This document shows positions 46,712 to 59,706 of a stretch of 64,000 bases of DNA, piece after piece (positions within the stretch are counted from its first letter, which is position 1; each line of letters begins with the position of its first letter). The position numbers were made by a program, and so were the translations under genes. The notes below the pieces were generated by a model that saw only the letters and a list, made by a program, of their open reading frames with translations, had not been told where the DNA came from and did not search any database. Source of the stretch: Legionella drozanskii LLAP-1 (GTDB lineage: Bacteria; Pseudomonadota; Gammaproteobacteria; Legionellales; Legionellaceae); contig NZ_LNXY01000031.1 of the NCBI RefSeq assembly GCF_001467585.1, positions 140,669-204,668 of the forward strand, in the 5' to 3' direction.

Positions 46712-47479
46712 ATGAAGGCAGTCATTTTAGCAGGCGGCTTAGGTACAAGGATCAGTGAAGAGACATCTGTTCGCCCAAAGCCTATGATTGAAATTGGAGG
46801 CAAACCTATTTTATGGCATATTATGAAGTTATATTCTGCTCATAATATTCATAATTTTATCATTTGCTTAGGCTATAAAGGTTATGTAATTAAAGAATAC
46901 TTTGCCAATTACTTCTTACATATGTCGGATGTCACTCTGGATATCACCAATAATAAAATAGAAATCCATCAGAATAATGCTGAGCCCTGGCTCATTACTC
47001 TCGTAGAAACAGGTGAGAGGACAATGACCGGCGGGCGAATTAAGCGAATCGCTAATCATCTAGGAAATGAGGACTTTTGCCTCACTTATGGCGATGGCGT
47101 ATCCGACGTGAACATTAGTGAATTAATCTCATTCCATAAAAAACAGAAAACGCTGGCAACTTTAACTGCCATTCAACCTCCCGGTCGCTTTGGCTCACTC
47201 CTCATGGAGGGTGACAGAATTACTGGTTTTAAAGAAAAACCTCAAGGCGACGGTGGTTGGATTAATGGTGGTTTTTTTGTTTTATCTCCTAAGGTTATCG
47301 ATTATATCGAAGGAGATGACACCATTTGGGAAAAACATCCTTTAGAACGGTTAGCGGAAGAAGACCAATTATCTTCATTTAATCATGATGGTTTTTGGCA
47401 TCCGATGGATACACTTCGAGATAAAAACTATTTGGAAGAATTATGGGAATCCGATAAAGCACCATGGAAAACATGGTAA
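46712..47479 (+). CDS. rfbF: Glucose-1-phosphate cytidylyltransferase
   Basis: Makes CDP-glucose from CTP and glucose 1-phosphate, the entry to CDP-3,6-dideoxyhexoses. The 255-residue protein matches RfbF/DdhA: AVILAGGLGTRISEETSVRPKPMIEIGGKP at the N-terminus, FCLTYGDGVSDVNI (metal-binding Asp), and AIQPPGRFG. The RfbH/ColD-like gene follows 45 bases downstream on the same strand. The partner CDP-glucose 4,6-dehydratase gene is 11 kb away at 58624. Confidence 0.94.
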   Translation: MKAVILAGGLGTRISEETSVRPKPMIEIGGKPILWHIMKLYSAHNIHNFIICLGYKGYVIKEYFANYFLHMSDVTLDITNNKIEIHQNNAEPWLITLVETGERTMTGGRIKRIANHLGNEDFCLTYGDGVSDVNISELISFHKKQKTLATLTAIQPPGRFGSLLMEGDRITGFKEKPQGDGGWINGGFFVLSPKVIDYIEGDDTIWEKHPLERLAEEDQLSSFNHDGFWHPMDTLRDKNYLEELWESDKAPWKTW

Positions 47480-47524
47480 TTATTCGGGATATCTAGTCTT
47501 TAAATTTTTAGAGAGAAAATAATA

Positions 47525-48745
47525 ATGAGCACTCAGCAATTTATCCATGTACCTTACGGAAAAACTGTACACGGCGAAGAAGAAATTGAAGCAGTTGTTT
47601 CCGTATTACGCACGTCCACCCAAATGGGCAAGCATGTGCGCGAAATGGAAGAGAAAGTTGCCACTTTATTTAGCAAAAAACATGGAATAATGGTTAACTC
47701 CGGCTCTTCTGCTAATTATTTGGCCATTGAAATCCTGGGTTTGCCTGCAGGCTCCGAAGTCATTACACCAACCTTAACGTTTTCCACCACGGTAGCTCCT
47801 CTAATTCGCAATGGTTTAATTCCTGCTTTTGTTGATGTTGAAGAAGGTACTTTCAATATCGACGCTAATCAGGTGGAGGCAATGATAACGCCTAAAACTA
47901 GAGCAATGATGATCCCTAATCTGCTAGGAAATCTACCCAATTGGAAAATGCTAAGAGATCTTGCTGATAAATATAATCTCATTATTATCGAAGATTCTGC
48001 AGATACACTGGGTGCAACCATCGGTGGCTCGTCGGTAGGCCGATTCAGCGATATTAGCACCACCAGTTTTTATGGTTCACACGTAGTTAACTGTGCTGGT
48101 AACGGTGGAATGCTCTGTGTTAATGAAGATACTCTAGCTTCTCGTGCGAAATTATTACGCAGCTGGGGCCGAAGTTCTTCTTTATTCGTGGAATCAGAAG
48201 CCATTGAAAATCGTTTTAATATTCAAGTAGATGGTATTGATTACGATGCAAAATTTGTTTTCGAAGCACTCGGTTATAACCTAGAGCCTTCCGAAATGGG
48301 TGCTGCTTTCGGTTTAGTACAACTTAGCAAACTAGACCAAAATATTAATGCGCGTGACCATGCGTTTCAATTGCATACCGAGTTTTTTAGCCGCTATAAA
48401 GAGTGGTTTATTCTACCAAAACAATTGCCTAACTCGCATACAGGTTGGTTAGCATTTCCATTAACGATTAAAGATAGTGCGCCATTTTCGCGCAAAGAAT
48501 TACAAATATTCTTAGAAAAGCGCAATATCCAAACTCGTACTGTCTTTACCGGCAATATCTTACGCCAACCAGGTTTTAGCAACATTGAACGACGTGAATC
48601 TGCGGCAGGTTATCCTAATGCCGATCGAGTCATGCGTGGTGGAATTCTGCTTGGTTGCCATCATGGCTTAACTCCTGAAATGATGGACCATATTCACCAA
48701 TCATTTGAGCAGTTTGCTAAGACTCATGCTGAGGTAACTGCCTAA
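47525..48745 (+). CDS. RfbH/ColD-like PLP-dependent sugar 3-dehydratase, lacking Fe-S cysteines
   Basis: A 406-residue DegT/DnrJ/EryC1-fold enzyme. H186 (TTSFYGSHVVNC) replaces the PLP-binding lysine of the aminotransferases, which is the mark of sugar C-3 dehydratases such as RfbH (E1) and ColD. In RfbH, a Cys cluster after the WGRD motif holds a [2Fe-2S] centre; here the same stretch reads WGRSSSLFVESE and NRFNIQVDG with no cysteine, then FEALGYNLEPSEMGAAFGL aligns again. A ColD-like, Fe-S-independent mechanism is therefore likely. Placement 45 bases after rfbF suggests CDP-4-keto-6-deoxyglucose as substrate; GDP-4-keto-6-deoxymannose from Gmd is the alternative. Confidence 0.82.
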   Translation: MSTQQFIHVPYGKTVHGEEEIEAVVSVLRTSTQMGKHVREMEEKVATLFSKKHGIMVNSGSSANYLAIEILGLPAGSEVITPTLTFSTTVAPLIRNGLIPAFVDVEEGTFNIDANQVEAMITPKTRAMMIPNLLGNLPNWKMLRDLADKYNLIIIEDSADTLGATIGGSSVGRFSDISTTSFYGSHVVNCAGNGGMLCVNEDTLASRAKLLRSWGRSSSLFVESEAIENRFNIQVDGIDYDAKFVFEALGYNLEPSEMGAAFGLVQLSKLDQNINARDHAFQLHTEFFSRYKEWFILPKQLPNSHTGWLAFPLTIKDSAPFSRKELQIFLEKRNIQTRTVFTGNILRQPGFSNIERRESAAGYPNADRVMRGGILLGCHHGLTPEMMDHIHQSFEQFAKTHAEVTA

Positions 48746-48819
48746 AGCATTCCAATTTTAATGGAAGATGAGAGGGCCTTACTCATCTTCCTTCACTGAC
48801 AATTAGTTGAGAATCTCTT

Positions 48820-58022: not shown

Positions 58023-58487
58023 ATGCATAAATTAACCTCCTACAAACTGACTCTTCTCCTAATATTGAATTTATTCTCTATCTTAACAGCCTCGGCTGGT
58101 GGAGACGTATGTGGTGATAATTCTTATCATGCACGTACCATTTATAATTATTCTACACAAACCTGGTTTATTGATGGCTGGGGTAACTCGATTCCTGGTT
58201 TAGGTGGTAGTTCAGTTTGGTTTGAACCTTGTAATGGAAAAACAAGTGTTGGTTGCCCTATACCCCCTCAGAGCCAAATAAGCATTTCCTATGTTGGTAC
58301 TGGTGGACTGGTACCCCGTCCTCCTGCAGGATCCATTAGACTTACTGATAAAAATGGGGTTGCTCATGATTTTTGGTTTGAATGTCTTAGGAGAGATCTT
58401 CAACTTGAAGGCTCCGTTGCTTCTACTGTGATGTCACTTAATCAGCCTAGGGGTGGAGATATTCACATCAGTGGTAATCAATATTAA
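58023..58487 (+). CDS. Exported hypothetical protein, 154 aa
   Basis: An N-terminal hydrophobic leader (KLTLLLILNLFSILTASAG) ends near residue 26. The mature part is aromatic- and glycine-rich with four cysteines (GDVCGDN, EPCNGK, VGCPIP, FECLRR) and a QPRGGDIHISGN ending. It is probably a periplasmic or secreted disulfide-bonded protein. No family recognised. The gap before it (57839-58022) has an imperfect GGGGG/CCCCC hairpin near 57850. Confidence 0.68.
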   Translation: MHKLTSYKLTLLLILNLFSILTASAGGDVCGDNSYHARTIYNYSTQTWFIDGWGNSIPGLGGSSVWFEPCNGKTSVGCPIPPQSQISISYVGTGGLVPRPPAGSIRLTDKNGVAHDFWFECLRRDLQLEGSVASTVMSLNQPRGGDIHISGNQY

Positions 58488-58587
58488 ATAAGCTTGGGTT
58501 GCTTTACTTCGATCGCAAACTTAACTTTGATCGTAAACTTACTGCTCTGGAAGAAACAAGATGCAACAACGCTGGTCAAAGGAAGAT

Positions 58588-58626
58588 TTGGCCAGTTAGA
58601 TTAGGCTAAGGCCCAATCTACATTTA
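58588..58626. repeat. Dispersed short repeat copy D, also a hairpin
   Basis: Minus-strand TGTAGATTGGGCCTTAGCC resembles copies A-C. The segment AGATTTGGCC ... GGCCCAATCT can fold into a hairpin with one mismatch between the convergent 154-aa gene and rfbG and may serve as a terminator. It touches the rfbG stop. Confidence 0.4.
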
Positions 58627-59706
58627 AATCTGAATCCCAGAGCGCCAAGCGTCGATCTGATTTAAGGTTAACTCTTTTACAGCCGTTGGGTTAGCGTAAT
58701 AATCTCGATACCAGGATGCGGTTTCTGCGATAATACGCTGAGTGTCCCAAACAGGTTGCCATTTGAGTAGAGCCCTGGCGACTGAGCTATCAAGCGCAAG
58801 TGCGTTGGCTTCAGGGAAAGGATTTTGCATATAAGTCAATTCTGGGCGTTGCCAATATTGGCTCATTAGCTCAAGCACATCACGCACTGAATAAGATTGG
58901 GGATCCTGTGGTCCTAGATTCCAAGCACGGGCATACGTCGTTGGATCTTCAGATACCAATCCTGCCAATAACATTAAATAACCATGTACCAGTGCAAGAA
59001 CATGCTGCCAAGGCCGAGTTGCATTCGGATACCTTAAAGTTAAGGTTTGATTTTCGAGGATAGCTCGCACAAAATCTGGTATTAATCGATCTTCTGACCA
59101 ATCACCTCCACCAATGATATTCCCACCTCTCGCTGTAGCGATGGCTGGTCCTTTGTTTTCACTCCAGGGATAAGAGGCAGCATAACTTTGAATAACCATT
59201 TCAGCAGCGGCTTTAGAAGCACTGTAGGGATCTTTCCCTCCCAGAGGATCTTCTTCGCGATATGGCCATAACCATTCTTTATTTTTATAAACCTTATCAG
59301 TGGTTATACACAAAACGGCGCGCACGCTTTTCACTAAGCGAGCTGCTTCAAGTACATGCACAGTCCCTTGAGAATTGACCGCAAAGGTACGAACTGGTTC
59401 GTGATAGGAGCGTCGCACTAGCGGCTGAGCAGCTAAATGCAGAATAAGTTCCGGTTGAAAATTCTCAACTGTGGCCAGAAAATTGGGATAATCACAAATA
59501 TCGCCGAAAGTGGTCTGAACAGAATCTTTTAAGCTTAAGGCATCAAATAAAGAGGGATTTGTGTTTGGAGGTAAAGAATAGCCTGCAATGGTTGCTCCAA
59601 TGGATTGTAACCAGAGGCAAGTCCAGCTCCCCGTAAAACCGGTGTGCCCTGTAATTAATATTCTTTTATTAATAAGTGACTGCTCAAAAGCCAGCAAACT
59701 CCTCAT
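58624..59706 (-). CDS. rfbG: CDP-glucose 4,6-dehydratase
   Basis: NAD-dependent SDR that converts CDP-glucose to CDP-4-keto-6-deoxyglucose. The 360-residue product has ILITGHTGFTGSWTCLWLQ, PELILHLAAQPLVRRSY, CITTDKVYKNKEW (typical of RfbG/DdhB) and YSASKAAAEMV with the catalytic Tyr and Lys. The start at 59706 follows GGAG; a start ten codons upstream is possible. It lies on the minus strand 11 kb from rfbF and the RfbH/ColD-like gene, so the pathway is split within the locus. Confidence 0.93.
   Translation of the reverse strand: MRSLLAFEQSLINKRILITGHTGFTGSWTCLWLQSIGATIAGYSLPPNTNPSLFDALSLKDSVQTTFGDICDYPNFLATVENFQPELILHLAAQPLVRRSYHEPVRTFAVNSQGTVHVLEAARLVKSVRAVLCITTDKVYKNKEWLWPYREEDPLGGKDPYSASKAAAEMVIQSYAASYPWSENKGPAIATARGGNIIGGGDWSEDRLIPDFVRAILENQTLTLRYPNATRPWQHVLALVHGYLMLLAGLVSEDPTTYARAWNLGPQDPQSYSVRDVLELMSQYWQRPELTYMQNPFPEANALALDSSVARALLKWQPVWDTQRIIAETASWYRDYYANPTAVKELTLNQIDAWRSGIQI

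What the first reader, a model, noticed from the sequence alone, without database searches (positions are those of the whole stretch)
46712..59706. Candidate branched-chain (yersiniose-type) sugar pathway in a Legionella-like O-chain locus
Seen: rfbF (46712), an RfbH/ColD-like dehydratase (47525), an SDR (49757), an acetolactate-synthase-like TPP enzyme (51752, minus) and rfbG (58624, minus) share one polysaccharide locus. Established: RfbF/G/H make CDP-4-keto-3,6-dideoxyglucose; in Yersinia, YerE, an acetolactate-synthase-like enzyme, adds the two-carbon unit of pyruvate to it, and YerF reduces the product to CDP-yersiniose A. Inference: this window encodes the same logic. From memory, yersiniose A has been reported in LPS of Legionella micdadei and L. 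maceachernii; if so this may be its genetic basis.
Basis: partly seen in the sequence, partly recalled or inferred. Interest (0 to 1): 0.78.

Follow-up and report, generated by a model that had tools for sequence, protein, structure and literature searches.

The report
Branched-sugar pathway in Legionella-like surface locus
A Legionella-like bacterium carries a gene set predicted to make a rare branched sugar (probably yersiniose) for its cell surface, and one of its enzymes, whose best-studied relative needs an iron-sulfur cluster and a helper protein, belongs to a branch without the cluster's anchors that may do without the helper.

Summary
rfbF and rfbG pass curated models. The TPP enzyme is YerE-like, not acetolactate synthase (AHAS): its best solved match is 5ahk (457 bits; recalled as P. 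protegens YerE; AHAS 6lpi 318), it groups with 5ahk and away from AHAS in a tree, the AHAS Trp is Phe, and the genome lacks ilvC and the AHAS small subunit. TPP, SDR and RfbH genes occur in the same 8 of 22 same-genus genomes examined, including L. maceachernii ATCC 35300, a species reported to carry yersiniose A. The SDR model best fits a CDP-sugar reductase, the YerF role.

Correction: the "RfbH" is not an ordinary E1. It keeps the catalytic His but lacks E1's [2Fe-2S] cysteines, and falls in a well-supported clade of 26 sequences apart from E1 and ColD. A detectable E1-type reductase lies near 0 of 19 complete loci of this clade and 27 of 61 Fe-S loci. I infer reductase-free, ColD-like (PMP/glutamate) C3-deoxygenation of a CDP-sugar. 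Verdict: new variant of a known pathway.

The parts
46712..47479 (+). rfbF (ddhA-like) glucose-1-phosphate cytidylyltransferase: makes CDP-glucose
   Evidence: TIGR02623 466 bits, cut-off 300
47525..48745 (+). Cys-less RfbH: predicted His-type CDP-4-keto-6-deoxyglucose 3-dehydratase without the E1 [2Fe-2S] ligands (His186 aligns with E1 His220)
   Evidence: E1 3bcx 239 bits, ColD 155-156 bits; alignments and residue counts; tree; model closest to E1
48820..49755 (+). GT2 of the ArnC/PgfS polyprenyl-phosphate glycosyltransferase type, probable carrier-lipid transferase for the sugar (inference)
   Evidence: PF00535; NF047588 183 bits, below its cut-off of 500; homologues at 55% identity or more in 34 of the loci held, some of which cover the same genome region twice
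49736..50836 (+). extended SDR, candidate YerF-role ketoreductase (S156, Y187, K191 invariant in 13 aligned sequences)
50888..51259 (+). GtrA-type membrane protein, possible flippase for the lipid-linked sugar (inference)
   Evidence: PF04138, 45.9 bits
51752..53503 (-). YerE-like TPP carboligase, predicted to add a 2-carbon (or longer) acyl unit to C4 of CDP-4-keto-3,6-dideoxyglucose; an internal ATG at 53479 is a likelier start than the TTG
53741..55531 (+). large membrane protein without a Pfam family, possible GT-C-like transferase (inference)
   Evidence: kept in L. nautarum (L029) at 83%
55568..57838 (+). large membrane protein with C-terminal DUF7024, possible periplasmic sugar transferase (inference)
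   Evidence: PF22895, 117 bits; homologues in the loci of G094, G097, G106, G108
58624..59736 (-). rfbG (ddhB-like) CDP-glucose 4,6-dehydratase
   Evidence: TIGR02622 436 bits, cut-off 278

Best explanation
The locus makes a CDP-linked 4-C-branched 3,6-dideoxyhexose of the yersiniose type for the cell-surface polysaccharide. RfbF makes CDP-glucose and RfbG makes CDP-4-keto-6-deoxyglucose. A Cys-less RfbH removes the 3-hydroxyl using PMP and an active-site His but, unlike E1, without a [2Fe-2S] cluster or E3 reductase: the 3,4-glucoseen adduct is hydrolysed as in ColD, and glutamate regenerates PMP. The YerE-like TPP enzyme decarboxylates pyruvate (or a longer 2-oxo acid) and adds the acyl unit to the C4 ketone. 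The SDR reduces the side-chain ketone. GT2 and GtrA then probably load the sugar on a polyprenyl phosphate and flip it, for transfer outside the cytoplasm. Shown here: gene content, family membership, co-occurrence, absence of the E1 cysteines, no detectable reductase near 19 of 19 complete loci of this clade, and no ilvC or AHAS small subunit found in the genome. Inferred: every catalytic step, the ColD-like mechanism, the donor, the lipid route, the sugar's identity.
For: TPP enzyme: 5ahk 457 bits against 318 for the next chain, AHAS isozyme 1 6lpi; tree, with 5ahk in a 30-row group at 100/98, and IlvI, IlvB and two AHAS-like rows outside the 41-row group (99/98) that holds it; Phe at the AHAS Trp in 30 of 30 of that group, Trp in IlvI and both AHAS-like rows of the family; no ilvC or small subunit (controls ring in 14 of 14 and 13 of 14). 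Linkage: of the 80 best TPP relatives in named genomes, a best-hit RfbH homologue in 74, rfbF in 69, rfbG in 66. Genus co-occurrence 8 of 22. L. maceachernii locus and reported sugar. RfbH: Cys-less clade of 26 rows, 100/100; His in 26 of 26; Cys at the last three E1 ligand positions in 0 of 26; reductase near 0 of 19 Cys-less against 27 of 61 Fe-S loci (p 1.6e-4, not corrected for kinship). SDR fold.
Against: No biochemistry. YerE and YerF of Y. pseudotuberculosis were not in the data, so membership rests on 5ahk, whose identity as P. protegens YerE I recall. The TPP enzyme is 42% identical to 5ahk. YerE-like enzymes take different donors (review passages), so the branch may be longer. Outside the genus the link is looser: of 12 other family genomes with a TPP match (E <= 1e-80), RfbH is in 11 but the SDR in 8. 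34 of 61 complete Fe-S loci also lacked a detectable reductase, so its absence is weak evidence for any one locus. The genome encodes one Fer2+FAD+NAD protein of E3-like build elsewhere (contig C11, 26% identity). Three other cysteines are frequent in the clade (C190 in 20, C198 in 25, C378 in 24 of 26), so another metal site is not excluded.
Confidence: 0.78

Rival explanations
1. The TPP enzyme is an acetolactate synthase for branched-chain amino acids that lies near rfb genes by chance.
For: NCBIfam's best model is TIGR00118 acetolactate synthase, below cut-off; the catalytic Glu and the AHAS Arg position are kept.
Against: No match to ilvC or the AHAS small subunit in a genome rated 100% complete; tree and Phe-for-Trp; co-occurrence with SDR and RfbH in 22 genus genomes.
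Confidence: 0.03
2. Same pathway, but a longer or functionalised 2-oxo acid is the donor (ErwE or JanthE style), so the sugar is not yersiniose but a longer-branched relative.
For: Characterised YerE-like enzymes differ in donor (review passages); the enzyme is only 42% identical to 5ahk.
Against: YerE of Y. pseudotuberculosis is said to prefer pyruvate and 5ahk is the closest solved relative; L. maceachernii, with an 85% identical enzyme, is reported to have yersiniose A.
Confidence: 0.2
3. The Cys-less RfbH works like E1 after all, taking electrons from the distant Fer2-type reductase through another metal site.
For: A protein of E3-like build exists on contig C11; C190, C198 and C378 are frequent in the clade; sequence and model are nearer to E1 than to ColD; 34 of 61 complete Fe-S loci also lack a nearby reductase.
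Against: Three of the four E1 ligands are absent in 26 of 26, the first in 20 of 26; no reductase detected near the genes in 19 of 19 complete loci.
Confidence: 0.2
4. The Cys-less RfbH is an aminotransferase, as records call its relatives, so a 4-amino sugar is made.
For: Three plasmid records name relatives as aminotransferases; SpnQ without a reductase shows such activity (review section).
Against: The Lys typical of aminotransferases is His in 26 of 26; the review says ColD and E1 showed no such activity under similar conditions; TPP carboligation needs the 4-ketone.
Confidence: 0.05

Closest known systems
YerE of Yersinia pseudotuberculosis and YerE-like PDB 5ahk (recalled as Pseudomonas protegens)
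   Same: TPP/AHAS-like protein, Phe at the AHAS Trp in 5ahk too, linkage to rfbF/rfbG/dehydratase, starred clade with 5ahk
   Different: 42% identity to 5ahk; forms its own branch with Bacteroidota and other phyla; the Yersinia sequence itself was not compared
E1 / RfbH (DdhC), CDP-4-keto-6-deoxyglucose 3-dehydrase, PDB 3bcx
   Same: Closest solved sequence and fold, His in place of Lys, CDP-sugar gene context
   Different: Lacks the [2Fe-2S] cysteines; no adjacent DdhD-type reductase; separate 100/100 clade
ColD, GDP-4-keto-6-deoxymannose 3-dehydratase, PDB 2gms/3b8x
   Same: No Fe-S cysteine set; His in the active site; predicted reductase-free chemistry
   Different: GDP-mannose pathway; other group in the tree; only 155-156 bits
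JanthE (PDB 8rph)
   Same: TPP enzyme; a JanthE-like gene (L167, 765 bits) and its near twin in L166 sit in loci with the Cys-less RfbH
   Different: CDG in place of GDG and another branch of the TPP tree

Membership tests
YerE-like carboligases | Phylogenetic grouping with a YerE apart from AHAS | tested here: met
   100/98 group with 5ahk (identity of 5ahk as YerE recalled); AHAS rows outside. Yersinia YerE itself not available
YerE-like carboligases | Genomic linkage to the CDP-3,6-dideoxy-4-ketosugar genes | tested here: met
YerE-like carboligases | Addition of an acyl unit to CDP-4-keto-3,6-dideoxyglucose | not testable with these tools
   Needs an assay
Acetohydroxyacid synthase (IlvB/IlvI) | Conserved Trp, small subunit, and downstream IlvC in the genome | tested here: not met
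   Phe instead (E. coli IlvB itself has Gln there); no small subunit or ilvC found
E1/RfbH [2Fe-2S] 3-dehydrases | Four Cys ligands of the cluster | tested here: not met
E1/RfbH [2Fe-2S] 3-dehydrases | Curated score of NF011936 reached | tested here: not met
   329 bits, cut-off 423
NDP-sugar 3-dehydratases (E1, SpnQ, ColD) | His in place of the aminotransferase Lys | tested here: met
   His186; His in 26 of 26 of the clade
ColD | Grouping with ColD | tested here: not met
   The ColD group of 6 rows (99/97) lies apart
ColD | Glutamate-driven, reductase-free turnover | not testable with these tools
   Inferred from the absent cysteines and the absence of a nearby reductase gene
Yersiniose pathway | YerF-type ketoreductase | tested here: inconclusive
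   The SDR co-occurs in the genus and its model best fits a CDP-sugar reductase; YerF sequence not available
Yersiniose pathway | Product present in LPS of a strain with the locus | tested here: inconclusive
   Reported for the species L. maceachernii (review passage), which has the orthologous locus; not known for the source strain

The most novel reading that the evidence does not exclude
The Cys-less RfbH clade is a third lineage of nucleotide-sugar 3-dehydratases, beside E1/SpnQ and ColD. It deoxygenates CDP-4-keto-6-deoxyglucose with PMP and glutamate alone, without iron or reductase, and feeds at least three fates of the CDP-4-keto-3,6-dideoxyglucose hub: TPP acyl-branching (three TPP lineages), C-methyl-branching, and plain reduction. 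It stands in for the Fe-S enzyme inside otherwise homologous branched-sugar cassettes, and annotation labels it an aminotransferase.
Probability: 0.6. Interest if true: 0.7.

Novelty: new variant of a known kind. Interest (0 to 1): 0.6.

Why it matters
It ties a sugar reported by chemistry in Legionella LPS in 1992 to a defined gene set that can be followed across species. It also brings out a wide clade of sugar 3-dehydratases that, if reductase-free, would make 3,6-dideoxy and branched CDP-sugars accessible with one soluble B6 enzyme and glutamate, and it questions an aminotransferase label on its members. Mechanistically it asks how an E1-like scaffold works without the iron-sulfur cluster.

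Tried and rejected
Acetolactate synthase role: rejected. A reductase 4.3 kb beyond the window end as a hidden E3: its ORF overlaps a ubiD gene and has an NAD-binding but no Fer2 domain; I take it for a Fre-type flavin reductase (label mine) and judge it unrelated. A Fer2-type reductase on contig C11 stays an open caveat. A regex for Fe-S cysteines mislabelled proteins with over-long starts; replaced by an alignment-based test. A regex for DdhD found only 2 loci; replaced by an HMM, itself built from hits in these same loci. A search of 369 class genomes for canonical YerE with the L038 enzyme gave only the window's own gene at E <= 1e-110, and the plasmid collection none at 1e-90, so YerE and YerF of Yersinia could not be compared. 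The AlphaFold model of RfbH is poor (pLDDT under 50) at 184-192 and 216-250, the former cluster region, so it says nothing about another metal site; 12 of its 19 alignment rows were Fe-S types. Literature: the only held paper with both 'yersiniose' and 'Legionella' is the 2021 review; one search listed only that review and the 15 titles shown of 2,618 none on this. For an Fe-S-free CDP 3-dehydratase I saw listings only (2 papers; 80: 8; 97: 5; 109: 10 of 19) and passages of PMC8987622, and found none described. [quoted passage not shown] it may already list the Legionella enzyme.

Rows dropped before counts: RfbH hits under 150 bits or with an aligned stretch under 330 residues, and identical copies; rows without rfbF within 8 kb, 5 loci cut by contig ends (4 Fe-S, 1 Cys-less), and from the 20 complete loci without the cysteines I set aside L107, whose second copy is ColD-like, giving 19; the TPP tree used a hand choice of 23 of the 80 scan loci beside the family and class loci; the RfbH tree used 32 hand-chosen of 75 Fe-S rows and all 33 others, plus three own-genome DegT outgroups.
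Full report
WHAT IS THERE. rfbF and rfbG pass NCBI's equivalog cut-offs for glucose-1-phosphate cytidylyltransferase and CDP-glucose 4,6-dehydratase. The RfbH-like and TPP proteins hit the expected models but stay below the cut-offs (329 of 423; 493 of 538), a first hint that neither is the textbook enzyme. Between them lie a polyprenyl-phosphate-type GT2, a GtrA protein and two large membrane proteins. rfbF, rfbH, GT2, SDR and GtrA are co-oriented, with gaps of 74 bases or less; TPP and rfbG are on the other strand. 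Genes that by Pfam look like manC, gmd and a further epimerase-type SDR follow at 60-63.6 kb (gene names mine), so the setting is a surface-polysaccharide locus.

THE ORGANISM. The window lies in a 3.56-Mb genome rated 100% complete. Its TPP gene is 94% identical to Legionella nautarum's and 85% to that of L. maceachernii ATCC 35300.

THE TPP ENZYME IS YERE-LIKE. The best solved relative is 5ahk at 457 bits; the next, AHAS isozyme 1 (6lpi), has 318. 5ahk is deposited as an acetolactate synthase; that it is the P. protegens YerE is my recollection, consistent with a review saying that a PpYerE structure exists (passages read). In a 49-row maximum-likelihood tree the window enzyme, 5ahk and 28 other rows form a 100/98 group; E. 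coli IlvI and IlvB and two AHAS-like enzymes of the family (L041, L042) fall outside the 41-row group (99/98) that holds it (several outgroup branches are long). At the AHAS Trp position all 30 rows carry Phe; IlvI, L041 and L042 carry Trp, E. coli IlvB carries Gln. The genome has no match to ilvC or the AHAS small subunit; the same searches ring in 14 and 13 of 14 control genomes. So it cannot serve branched-chain amino-acid synthesis in the usual way.

THE GENES TRAVEL TOGETHER. Of 140 family genomes searched, 22 are of the same genus. The TPP gene (76% or more identity), the SDR and the RfbH are in the same 8 of these 22; SDR and RfbH are in none of the other 14, one of which, G104, has an AHAS-like TPP enzyme only. 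rfbF and rfbG are in those 8 and in 0 of 4 others tested. Two genes sharing the same 8 of 22 by chance has odds of 3e-6, ignoring kinship. Outside the genus the link is looser: of 12 family genomes with a TPP match at E <= 1e-80, RfbH (either type) is in 11 and the SDR in 8. In three other genomes of the family rfbF, rfbG, RfbH, SDR and a TPP gene stand in a row (L046-L048).

LINK TO CHEMISTRY. A 2021 review (PMC7867332, passages read) lists a rare sugar, printed 'yersinose', in LPS of L. micdadei and L. maceachernii and cites Sonesson & Jantzen 1992 on yersiniose A. L. maceachernii ATCC 35300 (L051, the same contig as G094:C16 by length and coordinates) holds all five genes within about 32 kb. 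A second relative, G097, is one 3.31-Mb contig whose TPP row groups with L. maceachernii; L. micdadei ATCC 33218 is reported as 3.3 Mb without a plasmid (PMC4256840, passages read). G097 may be L. micdadei; this is not proven.

IS A REDUCTASE NEEDED? With an HMM built from the DdhD-like protein of L038 and its kin in these loci, a reductase lies within 3 kb of rfbF or rfbH in 27 of 61 complete Fe-S loci, in 23 of them next to rfbF and with a Fer2-type motif, and in 0 of 19 complete Cys-less loci (Fisher p 1.6e-4; 24 of the 27 are Bacteroidota by record title, so not independent). This and the absent cysteines support a reductase-free, ColD-like mechanism. Against it: 34 of 61 Fe-S loci lack a detected reductase too, and the genome has one Fer2+FAD+NAD protein on another contig.

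A NATURAL SWAP. The same TPP clade pairs with Fe-S E1 in Bacteroidota and others and with the Cys-less enzyme in Legionella; conversely the Cys-less enzyme pairs with other TPP lineages: that of L046-L048 and L165, and JanthE-like enzymes with the CDG motif in L166 and L167 (that 8rph is JanthE: passages of PMC12188165). Within the family, genomes G002, G033 and G074 carry an RfbH at 37-38% identity, the range of the Fe-S type; only that of G002 (L038) was checked and has the cysteines. In alphaproteobacterial plasmids the Cys-less gene follows rfbF-rfbG and precedes a SAM methyltransferase (a C-methyltransferase, PF08484, in L136) and an SDR (L136, L137, L139); in Ensifer and Sinorhizobium it precedes an SDR (L138, L140). 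The two enzymes thus look like interchangeable suppliers of one 4-keto-3,6-dideoxy hub.

VERDICT. Added are the genetic link to L. maceachernii and a Cys-less 3-dehydratase lineage. Donor acid, side-chain stereochemistry, lipid route and final sugar are inferred.

Noticed in passing
L136, L137, L139: Plasmids of Palleronia, Leisingera and Roseibium carry rfbF-rfbG-Cys-less RfbH followed by a class I SAM methyltransferase (C-methyltransferase PF08484 in L136), SDR and GT2, with GtrA nearby: a likely C-methyl-branched 3,6-dideoxy sugar.
   Followed up: partly
L036:7234-8431 (same region as L058, Legionella sp. 515359): The Cys-less RfbH gene appears split into two overlapping pieces in different frames, beside rfbF, rfbG, GT2 and TPP genes; that genome (G113) gave no SDR match.
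   Followed up: no
L051:922-2109: L. maceachernii has a second His-type enzyme nearer to ColD (186 bits) than to the window protein (144 bits) in the same region.
   Followed up: no
L041 (G104): One same-genus genome has an AHAS-like TPP enzyme with the AHAS Trp, while the window's genome gave no ilvC match: branched-chain amino-acid synthesis may be patchy in the genus.
   Followed up: no
window 38892-39926 (-) and 61544-62644 (+): Two genes of the GDP-mannose 4,6-dehydratase Pfam family, the second beside a manC-like gene and another epimerase-type SDR.
   Followed up: no
window 28375-29574 (-): A SET-domain protein, a eukaryotic-type domain, about 17 kb from the cassette.
   Followed up: no
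window 33992-35347 (-): A TraI_2/TraI_2_C conjugative-type nickase/helicase-like gene in a region otherwise of chromosomal type.
   Followed up: no
G000 contig C11:8354-9283 (L133): A stand-alone Fer2+FAD+NAD reductase of E3-like domain order, 26% identical to the DdhD-like protein of L038.
   Followed up: partly
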